Origin: a bacterium
Lineage (GTDB): Bacteria; ARS69
Assembly (NCBI GenBank): GCA_025774865.1
Contig: JALGZO010000523.1
Coordinates: 1 to 6,504, forward strand
Direction of reading: 5' to 3'
DNA: 6,504 bases
Shown here piece by piece: positions 1 to 6,504 of this stretch. Every line of letters starts with the position of its first letter. The first letter of the stretch is position 1. Under the pieces are notes generated by a model that was not told where the DNA came from, did no database searches, and worked only from the letters and a program-made list of their open reading frames with translations. The position numbers and the translations under genes were made by a program.

Positions 1-1418
1 CTCGGGAGCTCGTTCCGGCTTCGCGAGACGAAGATGACGCTCTCCCCCAGATCCGGCAATCGACCGCACGAACGTGTGAAGACGGGGTCCCAGGGGAGGA
101 ACGACTCGGCGTCCCGGCCCCAGTCGTGCACGATTGCGAACGCGAGGCCGTAGTCGTCGCTGCACACGCGGGGCGGCGGCCCCGTGCGGTCAGGGCGCGG
201 GAGATCCAGCTCGCAAGATCTGAACTCGGCGAAGCGATCGCTCCAGCGCCGAGTAGACGATACTCCGACCTCCCGCTCGCCCAGGTGGTCGGCGTAGGAG
301 TCGTCGAGCGCGGTCAGGATTCGATTCGACGAGAGTGCGCTCGACTCCCGCAGGACATCGGGACGCAGGCAGAACACGCCTGCCGCGATCGAGAGCACGA
401 TGGATGTCGTGGCGGCCATCACCAGCGGGCGGAGCCGGCGCGAGAGAGAAGCGGCTCCTGCCGGAACGAGCAGGGCGAGCGGCGCCAGAAACCAGTTCCC
501 CTTCGCCTGCCCGAAGAACCCGAACGTAGCGTGCAGCGCGAGAATCAGGCCCGCGATTCCGGCCACGGCGACAGTGGCGCTCGCGGCGGAGCGGATGGAG
601 CGAGCGCCGCCCAGGGCCGCCAGATAGAGGAGCGCCGGCCCTCCGAAAACCGCCGTCTCGAGCGCGGTGATCGCCAAGCGACGGGAAGGGGAGGTCGCTT
701 CGGCAAAGCGGCCGAACTCCCGGAGCCCGGAGAGGATGTGCTGGTCGCGTGAGACAATGAGCAGCGTCCCGGTCGCGGCGAGCACGGCGAGTGCCCCGAC
801 GGCCGCGCGCGGGCTCTCCCGACGGTGCCTCCAGGCCACGACTGCCGCGACCGGCAGGAGGATCGCTCCCGTCAGCTTGGTCAGGGCCACCAGACCCGCG
901 GCCACCGCCGCGGCCAGGAGAGGCCCGGTCTTTCGGCAATCCTCCGCTCCGAGGAGTGCCGCCATCCGATCCGCGAAGAGAAGGAGAAAGAGGCACAGGA
1001 ATGCATCCGGGTGAGCGATTGTCCCCACGTAGTTCTGCCAGGGGGCCGCCGCGAACGCGACACCCGCCCAGCGGGCCGCGCGCGGCGTGGCGCCGAGCCG
1101 AATCGCCAGGCGAATGACCAGCAGAGTGGCTCCGATCGCCGCCAGAGCCCCCGGCAGGCGGAGCCCCAGGGACCCGTCGCCGAACAGGAACGTCGATATC
1201 CGCAGCGCTCCCACCGTGACGAGCGAGTAGCTGGCATCGAGCCCGTGCCAGGCCCAATACCAGTACGCGAGCTCGTCCCGCCCGGGTGCGAGCCGGGAAG
1301 CCACGAAGAGACGCAGGCAGACCAGCGTCAGGAGAATCCAGGATTCGCCCGCTCTGACGAGTGTCCGCAGGGTCGCCCCTCCACGCTGCGGGCTCGCAGC
1401 CGTCCAATGTCGCATCAT
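1..1418 (-). CDS. PMT/ArnT-like membrane glycosyltransferase (partial, C-terminus beyond left edge)
   Basis: Probable integral-membrane glycosyltransferase of the GT-C fold (GT39/GT83, PMT_2-like), which would move a sugar from a polyprenyl-phosphate donor to an envelope acceptor on the periplasmic side. The frame is open for 472 codons without a stop to the window edge. It has the expected pattern of a first hydrophobic helix (about 26-42), an acidic D48-E49 motif in GRDELAYWYW at the start of the first periplasmic loop, and FGDGSLGLRLPGALAA (79-94). A second acidic HPDAF (136-140) lies at the usual TPD position, KLTG follows at 181-184, and QAKGNWFLAP (304-313) matches the family's late aromatic motif. 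A soluble domain follows from about 352. The usual D-x-PP stretch after the first acidic motif is absent. Two tandem ATGs (1418 and 1415) are possible starts; GGCAGG suits the second slightly better. It is transcribed divergently from the tetR operon. The family call is firm; the donor and acceptor are unknown. Confidence 0.85.
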   Translation of the reverse strand, partial: MMRHWTAASPQRGGATLRTLVRAGESWILLTLVCLRLFVASRLAPGRDELAYWYWAWHGLDASYSLVTVGALRISTFLFGDGSLGLRLPGALAAIGATLLVIRLAIRLGATPRAARWAGVAFAAAPWQNYVGTIAHPDAFLCLFLLLFADRMAALLGAEDCRKTGPLLAAAVAAGLVALTKLTGAILLPVAAVVAWRHRRESPRAAVGALAVLAATGTLLIVSRDQHILSGLREFGRFAEATSPSRRLAITALETAVFGGPALLYLAALGGARSIRSAASATVAVAGIAGLILALHATFGFFGQAKGNWFLAPLALLVPAGAASLSRRLRPLVMAATTSIVLSIAAGVFCLRPDVLRESSALSSNRILTALDDSYADHLGEREVGVSSTRRWSDRFAEFRSCELDLPRPDRTGPPPRVCSDDYGLAFAIVHDWGRDAESFLPWDPVFTRSCGRLPDLGESVIFVSRSRNELP

Positions 1419-1450: not shown

Positions 1451-1483
1451 CCCGATCGGAGGATCGAGGGCTTGACGATCGGG
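1451..1483. repeat. 8-base inverted repeat in the divergent intergenic region
   Basis: CCCGATCG (1451-1458) is perfectly complemented by CGATCGGG (1476-1483), with a 17-base spacer. The right arm overlaps the predicted -35 box and touches the first base of operator O1. It could be a second regulator's site, or a hairpin in the 5' leader of the minus-strand glycosyltransferase mRNA. Its function is unknown. Confidence 0.45.
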
Positions 1484-1500
1484 TAAACATCGTTTACTCT
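1472..1500 (+). promoter_or_regulatory. Candidate sigma70 promoter of the tetR operon
   Basis: TTGACG (1472-1477) matches five of six bases of the -35 consensus. After a 17-base spacer comes TACTCT (1495-1500), a weak -10 matching three of six. Transcription would start near 1507. Operator O1 fills the end of the spacer and the -10 box, and O2 covers the predicted start, as expected for a repressed promoter. The -35 is convincing; the -10 is weak. Confidence 0.5.
1483..1497. promoter_or_regulatory. TetR-type operator O1
   Basis: GTAAACATCGTTTAC is a perfect 6-3-6 inverted repeat (GTAAAC / GTTTAC) directly upstream of the tetR gene and overlapping its promoter. Short palindromes next to a tetR gene are the usual autoregulatory sites of this family. 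AT-rich arms stand out against the GC-rich surroundings. Confidence 0.75.
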
Positions 1501-1502
1501 GG

Positions 1503-1517
1503 ATAAACGTTGTTTTC
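1503..1517. promoter_or_regulatory. TetR-type operator O2 (imperfect copy of O1)
   Basis: ATAAACGTTGTTTTC matches O1 at 11 of 15 positions and keeps the inner AAAC-N3-GTTT core; the outer arm bases do not pair. Its centre (1510) is 20 bases from that of O1 (1490), about two helical turns, so two repressor dimers could bind the same face of the DNA. It lies 14 bases before the tetR start codon and overlaps the predicted transcription start. Confidence 0.65.
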
Positions 1518-1531
1518 CCGAGAGGTCCCCC

Positions 1532-2185
1532 ATGCCAGTTCCCACCGCAACGCGGACCGCGGCCACCCTCCATCAAATCGTCGAGGCGACTCGCGCGCTG
1601 CTGGGCCGGAACGACTACGCCTCCCTTTCGATGCGGAGCGTGGCGGCCGAGGCCGGCGTGACGGCCGGGGCGATCTACAAGCACTTCTCCAACAAGCGCC
1701 ACCTCGTCGACCACGTCTGTCACTCCGCTCTGGAGGAGTTCGAGGCCGAGCTTTCCCGAGCGATTACCCCCCTTCCCCCCGGATCGTTCGACCGGGTGAT
1801 CGCACTGGGTACCGCGTACATTCGCTTCGCCACGGAAAAGCCGGAGCAATTCAAGATCCTCTTCACGCCGATCAAACCCGAACCGACGAGACTCCGAGAC
1901 CTTCCGGGTGAAGGCGGCTTTCGCCTGCTCCGGGAATGCGTCGCCGAGGCGATGGACAGCGGCGCAATTCGTAGAGGAGATCCCGATCTCGCCGCATTTC
2001 TTCTTTGGTCCCGCGTCCACGGCATCGTCACCGTCCTGATGGCCTGCGACTTCAGCGAGTCGCTCTCCGTACCCGCGACAGACCTCACACCTCTACGCCT
2101 CTTCGAGATGAGTCGTGATTTCCTGTGGAAGGGATTCGCGCCGCCTTCCGCGGCCGGTCTCGACAGCGTTGGTAAGAAACCTTGA
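1532..2185 (+). CDS. TetR/AcrR-family repressor with WHG-type C-terminal domain
   Basis: A 217-residue one-component transcriptional repressor, of normal length for the family. The N-terminal DNA-binding domain is clear: TLHQIVEATRALL forms helix 1, and the helix-turn-helix spans about 33-52 and ends in GAIYKHF, the family signature. The C-terminal half carries GTAYIRFATEKPEQFKILF (93-111) and LWSRVHGIV (158-166), whose W159, H163 and G164 fit the WHG (TetR_C_33) ligand and dimerisation domain. The ATG at 1532 is preceded by GAGAGG (1520-1525) at a good 6-base distance. The gene is the first of three joined by 4-base overlaps. The two palindromes at 1483-1517 make autorepression, and hence control of the whole cassette, very likely. 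The inducer cannot be read from the sequence. The adjacent membrane acyltransferase-like gene suggests an acyl, lipid or envelope-stress ligand, which is inference only. Confidence 0.93.
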   Translation: MPVPTATRTAATLHQIVEATRALLGRNDYASLSMRSVAAEAGVTAGAIYKHFSNKRHLVDHVCHSALEEFEAELSRAITPLPPGSFDRVIALGTAYIRFATEKPEQFKILFTPIKPEPTRLRDLPGEGGFRLLRECVAEAMDSGAIRRGDPDLAAFLLWSRVHGIVTVLMACDFSESLSVPATDLTPLRLFEMSRDFLWKGFAPPSAAGLDSVGKKP

Positions 2186-3729
2186 ACCGGTCCGGGACGG
2201 GGCGCGCCAACACGCCCGCGCTGTCCTGGCTGTTCTTGGCCGCGGCAGTCCCGCTCCTCTGCGTGGCAAACGGGCGATGGATCCTTCCCCTCGCGGGCTG
2301 GCTGGCGCCGACATTCCTTCTTCTATTCATCCAGTCACGTCCCCCTCTTGTCGGACTGGGTGTCGGCTTCCTCGCACAGTTCCTCGCGTTCTCGTTGAAC
2401 TGGCAGGGCATGATTCCCGTGCCCGGCCTCTGGTACTACCTGGTGACCGGCACGTATGCGGTCGTTTACTTCGCTCCGTTCGCGATTCATCGTTGGCTCG
2501 CGCCTCGCCAATCCGCCGTGCGTTCGACTCTCGTCTTGCCCACGGCTTGGGTCGCGATCGAGTTGATTTTCCAGAGGTTTGCCAGCCCCTACGGGAGCTG
2601 GGCATCGCTCGCCTACACTCAGGTAGACCAACTACCACTTCTGCAACTGAGCACGGTGACCGGTATCGCCGGAATCCACTTCCTGATGCTGTGGTTCGCC
2701 GCCACCTGCTCCTTCGCATGGCAGAACCGCGGCCGGGCTGGGCTGCTCCTGCGGGTTGCGCGCGTCTATTCCGGTGTTCTCGTCGCCGTTTGGGTTTCCG
2801 GTGAGTTGCGAGTTCGCCTCGCTCCCCTCGACGTTGAATCAGTGCGAGTCGCCGGAATCACACCATCCGCGCGTCTCACATCCGATCTCAGGCAGTCGAT
2901 GGCGAAGGTCCCACCCGCTGGCGCACGCCAGAACGCAGCCCGGGAGGCGCTGATCGGGATCGCGGACCAGATCAACGAGGACCTCCTGGAAAGAACCCGT
3001 ACCGAAGCCCATGCGGGATCCGACCTGATCGTCTGGTCCGAGCACGCGGGCAGGGTCACGCCCCGTACCGAGACCCGACTGGTCCAGCAGGCTCAGGAGA
3101 TCGCCGACGAGTTCGAAGTGATCATCGTGATGGGAATGGGTGTCTGGCGCCCTCGAGAGCAACCGTCGTTCGAGAACAAGGCCGTGATCATCTCGGCACA
3201 CGGTGAGCAGGCTGGTACCTACTTCAAGGCGAAGCCCATCGTGGGACAGGAGACATCTTCCCTCGGGAGAGGCGATTCGAACGTGTGGATTCTGGAGTCG
3301 CCGCGCGCCCGCTTCGCAGTACTCATCTGCCACGACTTGGACTTCCCGGGCTTCGTTAGGCAGGCCGGCAGGGCAAACACCGTCGCGCTGTTGGCGCCCT
3401 CGGCAGACTGGGACGCCATCACCCCCCTCCACGCCCGGATGGCGATCCTGCGCGCGGTGGAGAACGGGTGTTCACTCGTGCGGCCCTGCGAGAACGGCCT
3501 CTCTCTTGCGGTCGATCCGCTCGGACGGATCCTCACCTCCCAACTGGACCACGGGCTTGATGGCAATGTAATGGTCGGCCACGTTCCGCTCTTTCGACTG
3601 CGCTCGGCCTATTCCCACATCGGGGACCTCTTCGCCTATCTGTGTGCCCTCGGCTTGATCGCGTTGGCGGCTTCCGGACGACGGACCAAGAGCACTCCGC
3701 GTGGACTCGACGAGGCGATTCCACGATGA
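2182..3729 (+). CDS. Lnt-like membrane carbon-nitrogen hydrolase (apolipoprotein N-acyltransferase homologue)
   Basis: This 515-residue protein has the architecture of Lnt, which transfers a phospholipid acyl chain to the N-terminal cysteine of lipoproteins at the periplasmic face of the inner membrane (E. coli Lnt is about the same length). There are seven N-terminal hydrophobic segments (about 14-30, 33-51, 55-72, 85-101, 115-131, 159-180 and 188-206), a nitrilase domain (about 220-470) and a last membrane helix (482-499). The PYGSWASLAYTQVDQLPLLQ stretch and the HARMAILRAVENG segment are Lnt-like. A catalytic triad can be assigned: E287 (LIVWSEHAG), K349 (YFKAKP) and C383 (LICHDLDFP). E357 lies eight residues after the lysine, like E343 of E. 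coli Lnt. The cysteine is followed by His-Asp rather than Tyr-Glu, which is more like soluble nitrilases. The start is a TTG overlapping the tetR stop; no in-frame ATG occurs before residue 77, and a later start would cut the first helix. It may be a true Lnt, a specialised paralogue or another amidase/acyltransferase. Confidence 0.85.
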   Translation: MNRSGTGRANTPALSWLFLAAAVPLLCVANGRWILPLAGWLAPTFLLLFIQSRPPLVGLGVGFLAQFLAFSLNWQGMIPVPGLWYYLVTGTYAVVYFAPFAIHRWLAPRQSAVRSTLVLPTAWVAIELIFQRFASPYGSWASLAYTQVDQLPLLQLSTVTGIAGIHFLMLWFAATCSFAWQNRGRAGLLLRVARVYSGVLVAVWVSGELRVRLAPLDVESVRVAGITPSARLTSDLRQSMAKVPPAGARQNAAREALIGIADQINEDLLERTRTEAHAGSDLIVWSEHAGRVTPRTETRLVQQAQEIADEFEVIIVMGMGVWRPREQPSFENKAVIISAHGEQAGTYFKAKPIVGQETSSLGRGDSNVWILESPRARFAVLICHDLDFPGFVRQAGRANTVALLAPSADWDAITPLHARMAILRAVENGCSLVRPCENGLSLAVDPLGRILTSQLDHGLDGNVMVGHVPLFRLRSAYSHIGDLFAYLCALGLIALAASGRRTKSTPRGLDEAIPR

Positions 3730-4259
3730 GGCTCCGCGTCCGGTCTCTCTTCGTCTACGGATTCTTCGCATCCTGCCTCGTTCTGGGGACGTCGTCCGTG
3801 GTGACCGGTGCCGACAGCAAGCTGATTCGGTTCCAGATCAAGGACCAGTTCGACCGCGTCCACACAGAGGAGGCACTGAAGTCTCGTGTCGTTCTCGTCC
3901 TCTGCGGTGACCGCGAAGGCAGCCGGTATCAAGGACTTTGGGGGGACCGGATTCGGGACTCACTTCGCGTGAGAGATCGGCTCTCGAGTGTCCTGCTCCT
4001 CGACGTCGCGGATCTCCGCGGCGTTCCCTTCTTCATCAAGGGAAGCGTGAAGCGGAAGTTCCCGAGAGAGAAAGCAGCCTGGGTCCTTCTCGACTGGAAA
4101 GGGCGCTTCGCACAGGCATACTCATTCCAGGCGGACAGTTTGAACCTCGCACTATTCGACCAGACCGGCACGCTCGTTTACCAGGTCGGGGTCCAGGAAC
4201 CGGACCCGGTCGAACTCGAAGTGCTCATGAGCCGGATCGCTCAGCTTCCGCGCGACTGA
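3726..4259 (+). CDS. Exported YtfJ-like thioredoxin-fold protein, possibly a lipoprotein
   Basis: A 177-residue exported protein of unknown function. The N-terminus is a signal peptide: arginines at 2, 4 and 6, then a hydrophobic run. It may be cut by signal peptidase I after TGA (about residue 29), or be lipidated at C17, since FFASC fits a loose lipobox. The mature part has a thioredoxin-like order: a strand with LKSRVVLVLCGDREGS (51-66), a mid-region VADLRGVPFFIKGSVKRKFP (94-113), then AAWVLLDWKGRFAQAYSF and LALFDQTGTLVYQVG, ending in a helix that closes such folds. The layout resembles E. coli YtfJ by recall. There is only one mature cysteine (C60) and no CxxC, so ordinary disulfide exchange is unlikely. 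The ATG at 3726 overlaps the preceding stop by four bases (ATGA) with GAGG at 3712-3715; an upstream in-frame ATG at 3642 lies inside the preceding gene and would lose the signal peptide. Expression is probably coupled to the Lnt-like gene. Confidence 0.8.
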   Translation: MRLRVRSLFVYGFFASCLVLGTSSVVTGADSKLIRFQIKDQFDRVHTEEALKSRVVLVLCGDREGSRYQGLWGDRIRDSLRVRDRLSSVLLLDVADLRGVPFFIKGSVKRKFPREKAAWVLLDWKGRFAQAYSFQADSLNLALFDQTGTLVYQVGVQEPDPVELEVLMSRIAQLPRD

Positions 4260-4430: not shown

Positions 4431-5663
4431 ATGAAGAAGAGGTACTACTGGATCGGCGCGGCGGTCGTGGTCGTGGGCGGCGTCGCGGGCGGACTGGCGA
4501 TGAGGAGCGGTCGGGACGAGACCCCGACCGTGCAGACCGCCAGCGTGGAAAGGAAGAAGATCGTCCAGAAGGTCGCCGCGAACGGGAAGATCCAGCCCAA
4601 GACGCAGGTCAAGATCTCGGCCGACGTGAGCGCGAAGATCACGAAGCTCCCCATCGAGGAGGGACAGTGGGTGGAGCAGGGCGCGCTGCTGATCGAGCTG
4701 GACCGGGAGCGCTACCTCGCGATCGTCGAACAGGCCGAGGCCCGGGTTCGCTCCGCCCAGGCGAACGCGGACCTCGTGCGCGAGAATCTGAACCAGACTG
4801 AGAAGGAGTTCGTTCGGTCCCGGGAGCTGGTCGCACGCGACCTGGAGTCGCAGTCCGGGCTCGACGCCGTCCAGGCCGCCTACCAGGTGGAGGTGGCGCG
4901 CCACGCATCCTCGCTCGATCAGGTCGAGCAGGCCAGAGCTTCGCTGAAGCAGGCCCGCGACGATCTCTCCAAGACCGCGATCTACGCGCCCATGTCGGGT
5001 ACCGTCAGCGACCTGAACAAGGAGCAAGGCGAGATCGCCATCGGCTCCCAGTTTCAGGAGGACGTGATTCTGGTGATCGCCGACCTCTCGGAGATGGAGG
5101 CCCAGGTCGACGTCGACGAGAACGACATCGTCTCCGTGGAGATCGGACAGCTCGCCGAGATCGAGGTCGACGCTCTTCAGGACCGGAAGCTGACGGGCAC
5201 CGTGACCGAGATCGCGAACAGCGCCAACCTCTCCGCGCAGGGCACGAGCGGTCAGAAGACGGAGTTCGAGGTCACGCTCACGATCACCGATCCCACGGAC
5301 GCCTTGCGCCCGGGGATGACGGCCAGCGCGAACATCCTCACGAAGACGAACGAGAACGCGCTGAGCGTGCCCATTCAGAGCGTGGCCGTCCGTACGGTAG
5401 ATCAGCTCATGCAGGAGGGCGAGACGCGCGAGGATGCCGAGGCGCGCTACACGGCAGATGATGACGGCTTCGTCGAGATCGTCTTCTGCATCGAGGACGA
5501 CCGGGCCGTCGCCAGGCAGGTGAAGACCGGGATCCAGAGCGACGACCTCATCGAGATCCTCGAGGGCCTCGAGGAAGGCGAGGAGATCGTGACCGGCAGT
5601 TACCGCGCGATCTCCAAGGATCTGGAGAACCGCGCCCCCGTGATCATCGACAACGACTCTTAG
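4431..5663 (+). CDS. MacA-like periplasmic adaptor (membrane fusion protein, HlyD/RND-MFP family)
   Basis: A 410-residue adaptor that would link an inner-membrane transporter to an outer-membrane channel. It has a short basic N-terminus and a single membrane anchor (about 5-24). The first half of the lipoyl-like domain follows (about 57-92, with KLPIEEGQWVEQGALLIELD). Next come an alpha-helical coiled-coil hairpin (about 95-178, rich in Ala, Glu and Gln), the second lipoyl half (182-217, with the hallmark YAPMSGTVS) and a beta-barrel (about 220-305, with LRPGMTASANI). A membrane-proximal domain (about 312-395) completes it. The membrane-proximal domain carries an acidic insert at about 323-345 (EGETREDAEARYTADDDG). 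The whole mature protein is strongly acidic. The permease starts 10 bases after its stop, so the two are surely one operon. The family is certain; the substrate is not, since such pairs export peptides, lipids, lipoproteins or drugs. Confidence 0.93.
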   Translation: MKKRYYWIGAAVVVVGGVAGGLAMRSGRDETPTVQTASVERKKIVQKVAANGKIQPKTQVKISADVSAKITKLPIEEGQWVEQGALLIELDRERYLAIVEQAEARVRSAQANADLVRENLNQTEKEFVRSRELVARDLESQSGLDAVQAAYQVEVARHASSLDQVEQARASLKQARDDLSKTAIYAPMSGTVSDLNKEQGEIAIGSQFQEDVILVIADLSEMEAQVDVDENDIVSVEIGQLAEIEVDALQDRKLTGTVTEIANSANLSAQGTSGQKTEFEVTLTITDPTDALRPGMTASANILTKTNENALSVPIQSVAVRTVDQLMQEGETREDAEARYTADDDGFVEIVFCIEDDRAVARQVKTGIQSDDLIEILEGLEEGEEIVTGSYRAISKDLENRAPVIIDNDS

Positions 5664-5673
5664 GCGGAAGCCC

Positions 5674-6504
5674 GTGAAACTGCTGATCGACCTCGGAGAG
5701 TCGTTCCGGATCGCTCTCGAGGCGATGAGCGCCAACAAGGTCCGGGGAGCGCTCACGACACTCGGTATCATCATCGGCATCGTCGCGGTGATCACCACGA
5801 TGACGGCGGCCAACGGGCTGCAGAACACGTTTCGCCAGAGCTTCTCGTCGGTCGGCACGGACGTGCTCTACGTCTCGCGAATGCCCTGGGTCGTCATGAA
5901 CGACTTCTTCCTCTTCCGGAACCGACCGCCAATCGAGCTCCGACAAGCCCGCGAGCTCGAGCAAAAGCTCCGCGGCAAGGGCATCGTCAATCCCACCATG
6001 GACGGTCGCCGGGACGTCAAGTTCCAGGCCAAGACCATCGAGGGTGTGACGATCATCGGCACGACCGAGAAGCAGATGCTCGTATCCAGCGCCAGCCCCG
6101 AGACGGGCCGGTTCCTGATGCCGTTCGACGTGACTCATCGCAAGGCCGTCTGCGTCGTGGGAACCGAAATACGCGACGGGCTGTTCGGCGACGCGGATCC
6201 CATTCACAAGACCCTCAAGATCGGACGCACCGAGTTTCGCGTCATCGGCGTCATGGAGAAGCAGGGCGGCCAAATGTTCGGCGGTCCGAACTTCGATCGC
6301 CAGATCTTCGTCCCGATCACGTCCTACGTGAAGGCGTTCGGCGGCCATCGCGGCCGGCAAGACGTGAACGTCGCGGTCAAGGCTCCGACGCAGGAGGCGA
6401 TGAGTGATCTCGAGTTCGAGATCATCGGCGAGATGCGGAAGGTTCGCCGGCTGCGGCCCTCGGAGCCCGACGACTTCTCCATCAACCAGCTCGACACCCT
6501 GGTG
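5674..6504 (+). CDS. MacB/FtsX-type ABC transporter permease (partial, C-terminus beyond right edge)
   Basis: The first 277 residues of an inner-membrane ABC permease of the MacB family. ESFRIALEAMSANKVRGALT followed by the glycine- and isoleucine-rich helix (about 27-47) is the canonical MacB permease start. A large periplasmic domain (MacB_PCD, about 50-265) follows, with typical pieces: VCVVGTEIRDGLFGD (149-163), an IG-x8-VIGVMEKQGG stretch (183-199) and FVPIT (212-216). DDFSINQLD (266-274) precedes the missing second helix group. There is no nucleotide-binding domain at the N-terminus, so this is a permease-only subunit and needs a separate ATPase, presumably downstream. The start is a GTG at 5674, since no ATG occurs before residue 18; a weak GGCGGAAG (5663-5670) lies just upstream. 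With the adaptor it should form a mechanotransmission-type export machine, as known for MacAB, that pushes a substrate out of the periplasm. Confidence 0.92.
   Translation, partial: MKLLIDLGESFRIALEAMSANKVRGALTTLGIIIGIVAVITTMTAANGLQNTFRQSFSSVGTDVLYVSRMPWVVMNDFFLFRNRPPIELRQARELEQKLRGKGIVNPTMDGRRDVKFQAKTIEGVTIIGTTEKQMLVSSASPETGRFLMPFDVTHRKAVCVVGTEIRDGLFGDADPIHKTLKIGRTEFRVIGVMEKQGGQMFGGPNFDRQIFVPITSYVKAFGGHRGRQDVNVAVKAPTQEAMSDLEFEIIGEMRKVRRLRPSEPDDFSINQLDTLV

What the first reader, a model, noticed from the sequence alone, without database searches (positions are those of the whole stretch)
1532..4259. Coupled cassette: TetR repressor, Lnt-like acyltransferase, YtfJ-like exported protein
Both gene junctions are 4-base overlaps (TTGA at 2182-2185 and ATGA at 3726-3729), so the three products are probably made together under one repressor. 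Lnt is normally a constitutive housekeeping gene, often next to other housekeeping genes; a TetR-controlled copy tied to a small exported protein suggests an inducible envelope or lipoprotein-modifying function. I do not know of a described system with this exact set.
Basis: partly seen in the sequence, partly recalled or inferred. Interest (0 to 1): 0.65.

Follow-up and report, generated by a model that had tools for sequence, protein, structure and literature searches.

The report
Self-regulated operon with non-canonical Lnt paralogue
A poorly known bacterium carries, besides its normal lipoprotein-finishing enzyme (Lnt), a second, altered version tied to its own dedicated TetR switch and to a small exported protein; the switch-plus-enzyme pair recurs in other bacterial phyla, which points to an inducible, undescribed cell-envelope chemistry.

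Summary
TetR, an Lnt-like membrane enzyme and a small exported protein overlap by 4 nt at both junctions. A second genus of the same family carries the same trio and overlaps with different flanks; the genome also has a separate canonical lnt. The Lnt-like protein is not canonical: it keeps the Glu/Lys/Cys triad but has C-H-D instead of C-[YF]-E, lacks the 345-365 arm (Lys-Cys spacing 34 against 49-67) and falls in a separate clade (98/89) that RefSeq calls 'nitrilase-related carbon-nitrogen hydrolase'. TetR followed by this gene recurs in a second small phylum and in Phyllobacterium (4-nt overlap again); all these TetRs share TetR_C_33, and a palindromic operator overlaps each promoter. In both family genomes and on the Phyllobacterium plasmid the operator occurs once, only here, so the repressor looks dedicated to this operon. 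The exported protein is thioredoxin-like without CxxC, distantly YtfJ-like; the full trio was found in only two genera. Most likely function: inducible envelope acyl-transfer or amidase chemistry on a non-lipoprotein substrate. Regulation is well supported by sequence; the chemistry is inferred.

The parts
1472..1500 (+). putative promoter: -35 TTGACG (1472-1477), 17-bp spacer, -10-like TACTCT (1495-1500)
   Evidence: same layout in G004 (TTGACA-17-TACCAT), G388 (TTGACA-17-TAGTCT) and G386 (TTGACA-17-TACTGT), each with a palindrome in the spacer; below the threshold of the consensus scan
1483..1497 (.). operator O1, GTAAACATCGTTTAC, inside the promoter spacer and overlapping the -10
   Evidence: palindrome; conserved in G004 and, as GGTATACAGTGTATACT, upstream of the Phyllobacterium tetR; one place per genome allowing one mismatch
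1503..1517 (.). operator O2, weaker copy, 20 bp downstream of O1
   Evidence: 3 mismatches to O1 on the minus strand; shuffles expect 0.03 matches at this stringency in the whole window
1532..2185 (+). TetR-family repressor with TetR_C_33 domain, 217 aa
   Evidence: G004 orthologue 78% identical
2182..3729 (+). short-arm, C-x-D Lnt paralogue, 515 aa, TTG start overlapping the tetR stop (TTGA 2182-2185); triad E287/K349/C383
   Evidence: G004 orthologue 69% identical
3726..4259 (+). small Sec-type exported protein, thioredoxin-like without CxxC, distantly YtfJ-like, 177 aa, ATG start overlapping the lnt-like stop (ATGA 3726-3729)
   Evidence: model pLDDT 58, VIA Z 10.1 to a thioredoxin-like protein, Foldseek best E 3e-4

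Best explanation
A self-contained, repressor-controlled operon. TetR binds a tandem palindromic operator (O1 in the promoter spacer, O2 just downstream) and so represses its own operon and, as far as the sequence shows, nothing else. When TetR is released, presumably by a small hydrophobic ligand, the cell makes a membrane-embedded, periplasm-facing nitrilase-fold enzyme of a clade distinct from housekeeping Lnt. It probably forms an acyl-thioester on C383 from a membrane lipid and passes the acyl group to a non-lipoprotein acceptor. In this family a small exported thioredoxin-fold protein without a redox motif is made with it as a periplasmic partner. SHOWN by sequence: operon layout, conservation in two genera, separate canonical lnt, unique operator, distinct clade, intact triad, loss of the arm. 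INFERRED: DNA binding and ligand-driven derepression, acyl-enzyme chemistry, non-lipoprotein acceptor, partnership of the small protein.
For: Both junctions overlap by 4 nt here and in G004. Operator overlapping the promoter is conserved; GGTAWACANYGTWTACY with up to 1 mismatch occurs at one place in G000, one in G004, one on the Phyllobacterium plasmid, none in G001-G003. TetR plus short-arm enzyme recurs in f128 and Phyllobacterium, always with TetR_C_33; in G386/G388 the exact palindromes lie only at that locus. Clade split 98/89 against 97/98. Lys-Cys spacing 28-34 and C-x-D in all 16 members against 49-67 and C-x-E in canonical Lnt. Canonical lnt present separately. The 345-365 arm holds residues needed for Lnt function, and W237 and F358 for the second, transfer step; Y388 and E389 are essential.
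Against: No direct evidence for acyl transfer, ligand or acceptor. Most members of the clade are not TetR-linked. The f128 TetRs are not clearly orthologous to the window TetR and their operator sequence differs. The small protein is absent from the other TetR-linked loci. The structure models are weak.
Confidence: 0.5

Rival explanations
1. The enzyme is a membrane amidase or hydrolase, not an acyltransferase: it cleaves an amide-linked lipid, signal or antimicrobial that TetR senses.
For: Nitrilase-superfamily enzymes mostly hydrolyse C-N bonds (PMC5500888). The short Lys-Cys loop (28-34) and C-x-D motif are closer to a soluble CN-hydrolase of this genome (L001: spacing 37, CYD) than to Lnt. 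TetR repressors often sense small hydrophobic compounds (general knowledge).
Against: It keeps the LNT_N membrane domain that gives Lnt access to phospholipid, and the E343 equivalent at the same distance from Lys.
Confidence: 0.28
2. It is an inducible backup Lnt that N-acylates ordinary lipoproteins under stress or Lnt inhibition.
For: LNT_N plus CN_hydrolase, intact triad and E343 equivalent; resistance-like TetR control.
Against: Lacks the 345-365 arm; Y388 and E389 are replaced by H and D; separate clade from all sampled canonical Lnts; below the lnt model cut-off.
Confidence: 0.12
3. An AatD-like system: the enzyme acylates the N-terminus of the small exported protein, which the neighbouring MacA/MacB-like exporter then moves to the surface.
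For: Lnt paralogue, small Sec-exported protein, HlyD/MacA adaptor and MacB-like permease stand side by side here; precedent in PMC7943197.
Against: Predicted mature N-terminus is Asp here, Glu in G004, Ser in G108, not Gly (by eye). MacAB is not next to the trio in G004, and a 171-bp gap separates it here. AatD's published Lys-Cys spacing is 47 (K278, C325) against 34. The small protein is thioredoxin-like and missing at other TetR-linked loci.
Confidence: 0.06

Closest known systems
Apolipoprotein N-acyltransferase Lnt (E. coli; NCBIfam TIGR00546)
   Same: LNT_N membrane domain plus CN_hydrolase domain, Glu/Lys/Cys triad, E343 equivalent eight residues after the Lys
   Different: C-H-D instead of C-[YF]-E, no 345-365 arm, no NDxWFG motif, separate clade, TetR-controlled accessory gene beside a canonical lnt elsewhere
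AatD of the Aat system (PMC7943197)
   Same: An Lnt paralogue with its own substrate, linked to a small exported protein; triad and E343 equivalent conserved
   Different: Lys-Cys spacing 47 against 34; AatD substrate begins with Gly after signal cleavage; exporter genes are part of that system and not conserved here; no TetR described there in the passages read
RefSeq 'nitrilase-related carbon-nitrogen hydrolase' (Salinibacter ruber, Streptomyces, Spirosoma, Blastomonas, Phyllobacterium)
   Same: Same clade, same short loop and C-x-D motif; the Phyllobacterium copy is in a TetR operon with a 4-nt overlap
   Different: An annotation name without a described function in the papers searched; other members sit beside Crp/Fnr, ArsR or histidine-kinase genes, and none has the small exported protein
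YtfJ_HI0045 family (PF09695) / AhpC-TSA thioredoxin-like proteins
   Same: Exported thioredoxin-like protein; the homologue L089 passes the PF09695 cut-off
   Different: The window protein itself has no direct Pfam match and no CxxC

Membership tests
Canonical Lnt | LNT_N and CN_hydrolase domains | tested here: met
   E 5e-11 and 5e-14
Canonical Lnt | Glu/Lys/Cys catalytic triad and E343 equivalent | tested here: met
   E287, K349, C383; E357 eight residues after the Lys
Canonical Lnt | C-Y/F-E at the nucleophile (Y388 and E389 essential in E. coli) | tested here: not met
   C383-H384-D385; all 16 clade members have Asp; essentiality from PMC5500888
Canonical Lnt | 345-365 arm between E343 and C387 | tested here: not met
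   Lys-Cys spacing 34 against 49-67 in canonical sequences; role of the arm from PMC6971011
Canonical Lnt | score above the NCBIfam lnt cut-off and place inside the canonical clade | tested here: not met
   95.6 against 132.9 bits; outside the canonical branch with support 97/98
Canonical Lnt | N-acylation of apolipoproteins | not testable with these tools
   needs complementation or an in vitro assay
AatD glycine acyltransferase system | small substrate with N-terminal Gly after Sec cleavage | tested here: not met
   Asp, Glu or Ser predicted by eye in three homologues; defining feature from PMC7943197
AatD glycine acyltransferase system | conserved linked ABC exporter genes | tested here: not met
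   MacA/MacB adjacent here but not in G004
AatD glycine acyltransferase system | direct sequence relationship to AatD | not tested
TetR-family autorepressor | TetR_N helix-turn-helix and a ligand-type C-terminal domain | tested here: met
   TetR_N 1e-14, TetR_C_33 6e-13
TetR-family autorepressor | palindromic operator overlapping its own promoter, conserved in relatives | tested here: met
   weak support in Phyllobacterium (13 of 17 positions, 23 of 5000 shuffles)
TetR-family autorepressor | DNA binding and ligand-induced release | not testable with these tools
   needs gel shift and reporter assay
YtfJ_HI0045 | match to PF09695 | tested here: inconclusive
   no direct hit; homologue L089 26.5 bits against cut-off 24, other homologues below it
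YtfJ_HI0045 | thioredoxin-like fold | tested here: inconclusive
   low-confidence model, pLDDT 58; VIA Z 10.1, Foldseek E 3e-4

The most novel reading that the evidence does not exclude
The short-arm, C-x-D Lnt paralogues form a distinct enzyme family that acylates or deacylates non-lipoprotein envelope substrates on demand. Each TetR-linked copy is a one-operon regulon, and in this lineage a thioredoxin-fold periplasmic protein without a redox motif serves as acceptor or substrate carrier.
Probability: 0.3. Interest if true: 0.75.

Novelty: new variant of a known kind. Interest (0 to 1): 0.5.

Why it matters
Lnt is studied as an essential housekeeping enzyme and antibiotic target, and one paralogue with a changed substrate (AatD) was established only recently. 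A widespread, arm-less paralogue clade, in some lineages under a dedicated repressor, would mean that membrane nitrilases are used repeatedly for inducible envelope chemistry. It offers a testable system in a cultured Phyllobacterium, and it warns that genes named Lnt or 'nitrilase-related hydrolase' may not finish lipoproteins.

Tried and rejected
(1) Trio as a widespread system: the small-protein profile found no second trio outside the family in 290 genomes, and the plasmid collection gave no match. (2) Sole housekeeping lnt: rejected, a canonical copy exists on C216. (3) MacAB as part of the unit: rejected, not adjacent in G004, and no second copy of the operator in the genome. (4) Small protein as a lipoprotein: Cys17 sits in a marginal lipobox, but the G004 and G108 signal peptides have no Cys. 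(5) Orthology of the f128 TetRs to the window TetR: inconclusive, the neighbouring TetR is only among the best three to four in those genomes, and their upstream regions match the window operator no better than shuffles do. (6) The AlphaFold model of the Lnt-like protein was too poor to compare (pLDDT 48). (7) The genome-contig scan returned only G004's contig. (8) The last genome search, centred on G062, reached one genome and shows nothing. (9) The sigma-70 scan found no promoter over its threshold, so the promoter rests on comparison. (10) Palindromes in single upstream regions are not exceptional on their own (shuffles reach the window's best score in 54 of 300); the case rests on conservation and genome-wide uniqueness. 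(11) Rfam: no RNA. (12) Paper searches gave no description of a TetR-Lnt operon in the open-access library; most subscription papers are not held. (13) Phages: one weak partial match only.

Full report
OBSERVATION. The three ORFs and both 4-base overlaps are as described: tetR 1532-2185, lnt-like 2182-3729, small gene 3726-4259. Domains are TetR_N/TetR_C_33 and LNT_N/CN_hydrolase; the small protein has no direct family match. The window is the complete 6504-nt contig C527 of a 4.7-Mb, 785-contig MAG from a phylum with five held genomes.

SAME TRIO IN A SECOND GENUS. G004 (public contig JALGZR010000023.1) has the same three genes in the same order, 78, 69 and about 60% identical, with 4-nt overlaps and GTG starts at both junctions. 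The flanks differ: a GT39-type gene and MacA/MacB here; an MFS-like gene and protein-kinase genes there (the G004 neighbours were named by eye). Divergence is concentrated in third codon positions. The trio is therefore a real, selected unit, and MacAB is not part of it. Three other genomes of the family have no match to the small gene or to this TetR, and no clear member of the short-arm clade.

CANONICAL LNT IS ELSEWHERE. The genome holds two LNT_N proteins: this one and a 567-aa protein on C216 with the canonical features. On the tree the C216 protein groups with the Lnts of its family relatives. G004 likewise has a second match, in a 586-aa open frame on C170, which I did not examine further.

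THE ENZYME IS A DIFFERENT CLADE. The triad E287/K349/C383 and the E343 equivalent E357 are intact. The residues after the cysteine are H-D instead of Y/F-E, the NDxWFG motif is replaced by SADW, and the Lys-Cys stretch is 34 residues against 49-67 in all canonical sequences sampled. In E. coli Lnt the missing stretch is the mobile 345-365 arm, and Y388 and E389 are essential (PMC5500888, PMC6971011). On an IQ-TREE tree of 46 proteins the 16 short-arm sequences form one side of a branch (98/89) and the 25 canonical ones another (97/98). Members occur on plasmids of Salinibacter, Streptomyces, Hymenobacter, Spirosoma, an Erythrobacteraceae bacterium, Blastomonas and Phyllobacterium, where annotated copies are called nitrilase-related carbon-nitrogen hydrolase or hypothetical protein. 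In the 386-genome sample only four genomes, from two families, carried clear members of this clade, so its distribution there is patchy.

THE TETR PAIR RECURS. In f128, a separate small phylum, G388:C45 and G386:C49 have a TetR immediately upstream of a short-arm enzyme. Phyllobacterium sp. T1293 has TetR and enzyme overlapping by 4 nt. The TetRs tested carry TetR_C_33. With some 30-37 TetR candidates in genomes of about 10 Mb, my estimate is that a same-strand upstream TetR by chance is well under 1% per locus; the two f128 loci are not independent of each other. Other f128 members (L062, L063, L085) and most plasmid members have no TetR, so TetR is one of several regulators attached to this clade: Crp/Fnr, ArsR and histidine-kinase/response-regulator genes are neighbours of others.

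OPERATOR AND REGULON. The window has GGTAAACATCGTTTACT in the 17-bp spacer of TTGACG-TACTCT and a weaker copy 20 bp on. G004 has GGTAAACAGCGTTTACC and Phyllobacterium GGTATACAGTGTATACT. The best match of the window site upstream of the Phyllobacterium tetR is 13 of 17, reached in 23 of 5000 shuffles. Allowing one mismatch, GGTAWACANYGTWTACY occurs at one place in G000, one in G004, one on the Phyllobacterium plasmid and nowhere in G001-G003; the pattern was derived from these three sites, so the point is its absence elsewhere. In G386 and G388 the exact palindromes lie only at the tetR-lnt locus, with extra sites between tetR and the enzyme gene. This supports a dedicated, autoregulatory repressor whose regulon is this operon. 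The f128 operator sequence itself is different.

SMALL PROTEIN. It has a Sec-type signal peptide (by eye), no conserved lipobox and no CxxC; its Cys60 is not kept in the G108 homologue. Homologues match YtfJ_HI0045 and AhpC-TSA. The low-confidence model resembles thioredoxins. The G108 homologue is one open frame with a methionine sulfoxide reductase domain. A thioredoxin-fold partner without a redox motif is the best reading.

MECHANISM. Shown by sequence: layout, conservation, unique operator, distinct clade, intact triad. Inferred from Lnt biochemistry: an acyl-thioester on C383 taken from a membrane lipid. Inferred from the loss of the arm and of the Y-E pair: the acceptor is not an apolipoprotein. 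The AatD precedent shows that Lnt paralogues can change substrate, but its own signature (N-terminal Gly substrate, conserved ABC exporter, Lys-Cys spacing 47) is not met here. Acyl transfer against amide hydrolysis cannot be decided from sequence.

LIMITS. Scores of A9 members come from a profile built partly on them. The genome sample is dominated by unnamed, mostly uncultured lineages. Signal peptide cleavage was judged by eye. The MAG's estimated contamination is 8.3%, although the trio in G004 and the family placement of the C216 Lnt argue that both belong to the lineage.

Noticed in passing
window 4431-6504: HlyD/MacA-type adaptor followed by a MacB-like permease (cut by the contig end), 171 bp downstream of the trio and not adjacent to it in G004.
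   Followed up: partly
window 3-1418, minus strand: PMT_2/GT39-type membrane glycosyltransferase gene, divergent from the operon and cut by the contig end.
   Followed up: no
L088:6842-7891 (G108): Homologue of the small exported protein in one open frame with a methionine sulfoxide reductase (MsrA) domain.
   Followed up: partly
L062:3905-7090 and L063:7761-11309 (G267, G131): Next to the f128 short-arm enzymes lies a large exported protein with two DsbA-like (FxCPFC) repeats at its C-terminus; read by eye only.
   Followed up: no
L022, L025, L040, L044, L048: Other LNT_N-type enzymes with C-x-D and short Lys-Cys spacing that fall outside both the short-arm and the canonical branches: possibly further Lnt-related subfamilies.
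   Followed up: partly
OQ572405.1 (Pseudomonas phage Y3), 15355-16071: A 24-kb phage record contains an lnt-like stretch, possibly bacterial DNA in the record; some PLSDB 'plasmids' of 3-4 Mb with lnt also look like chromosomes.
   Followed up: no
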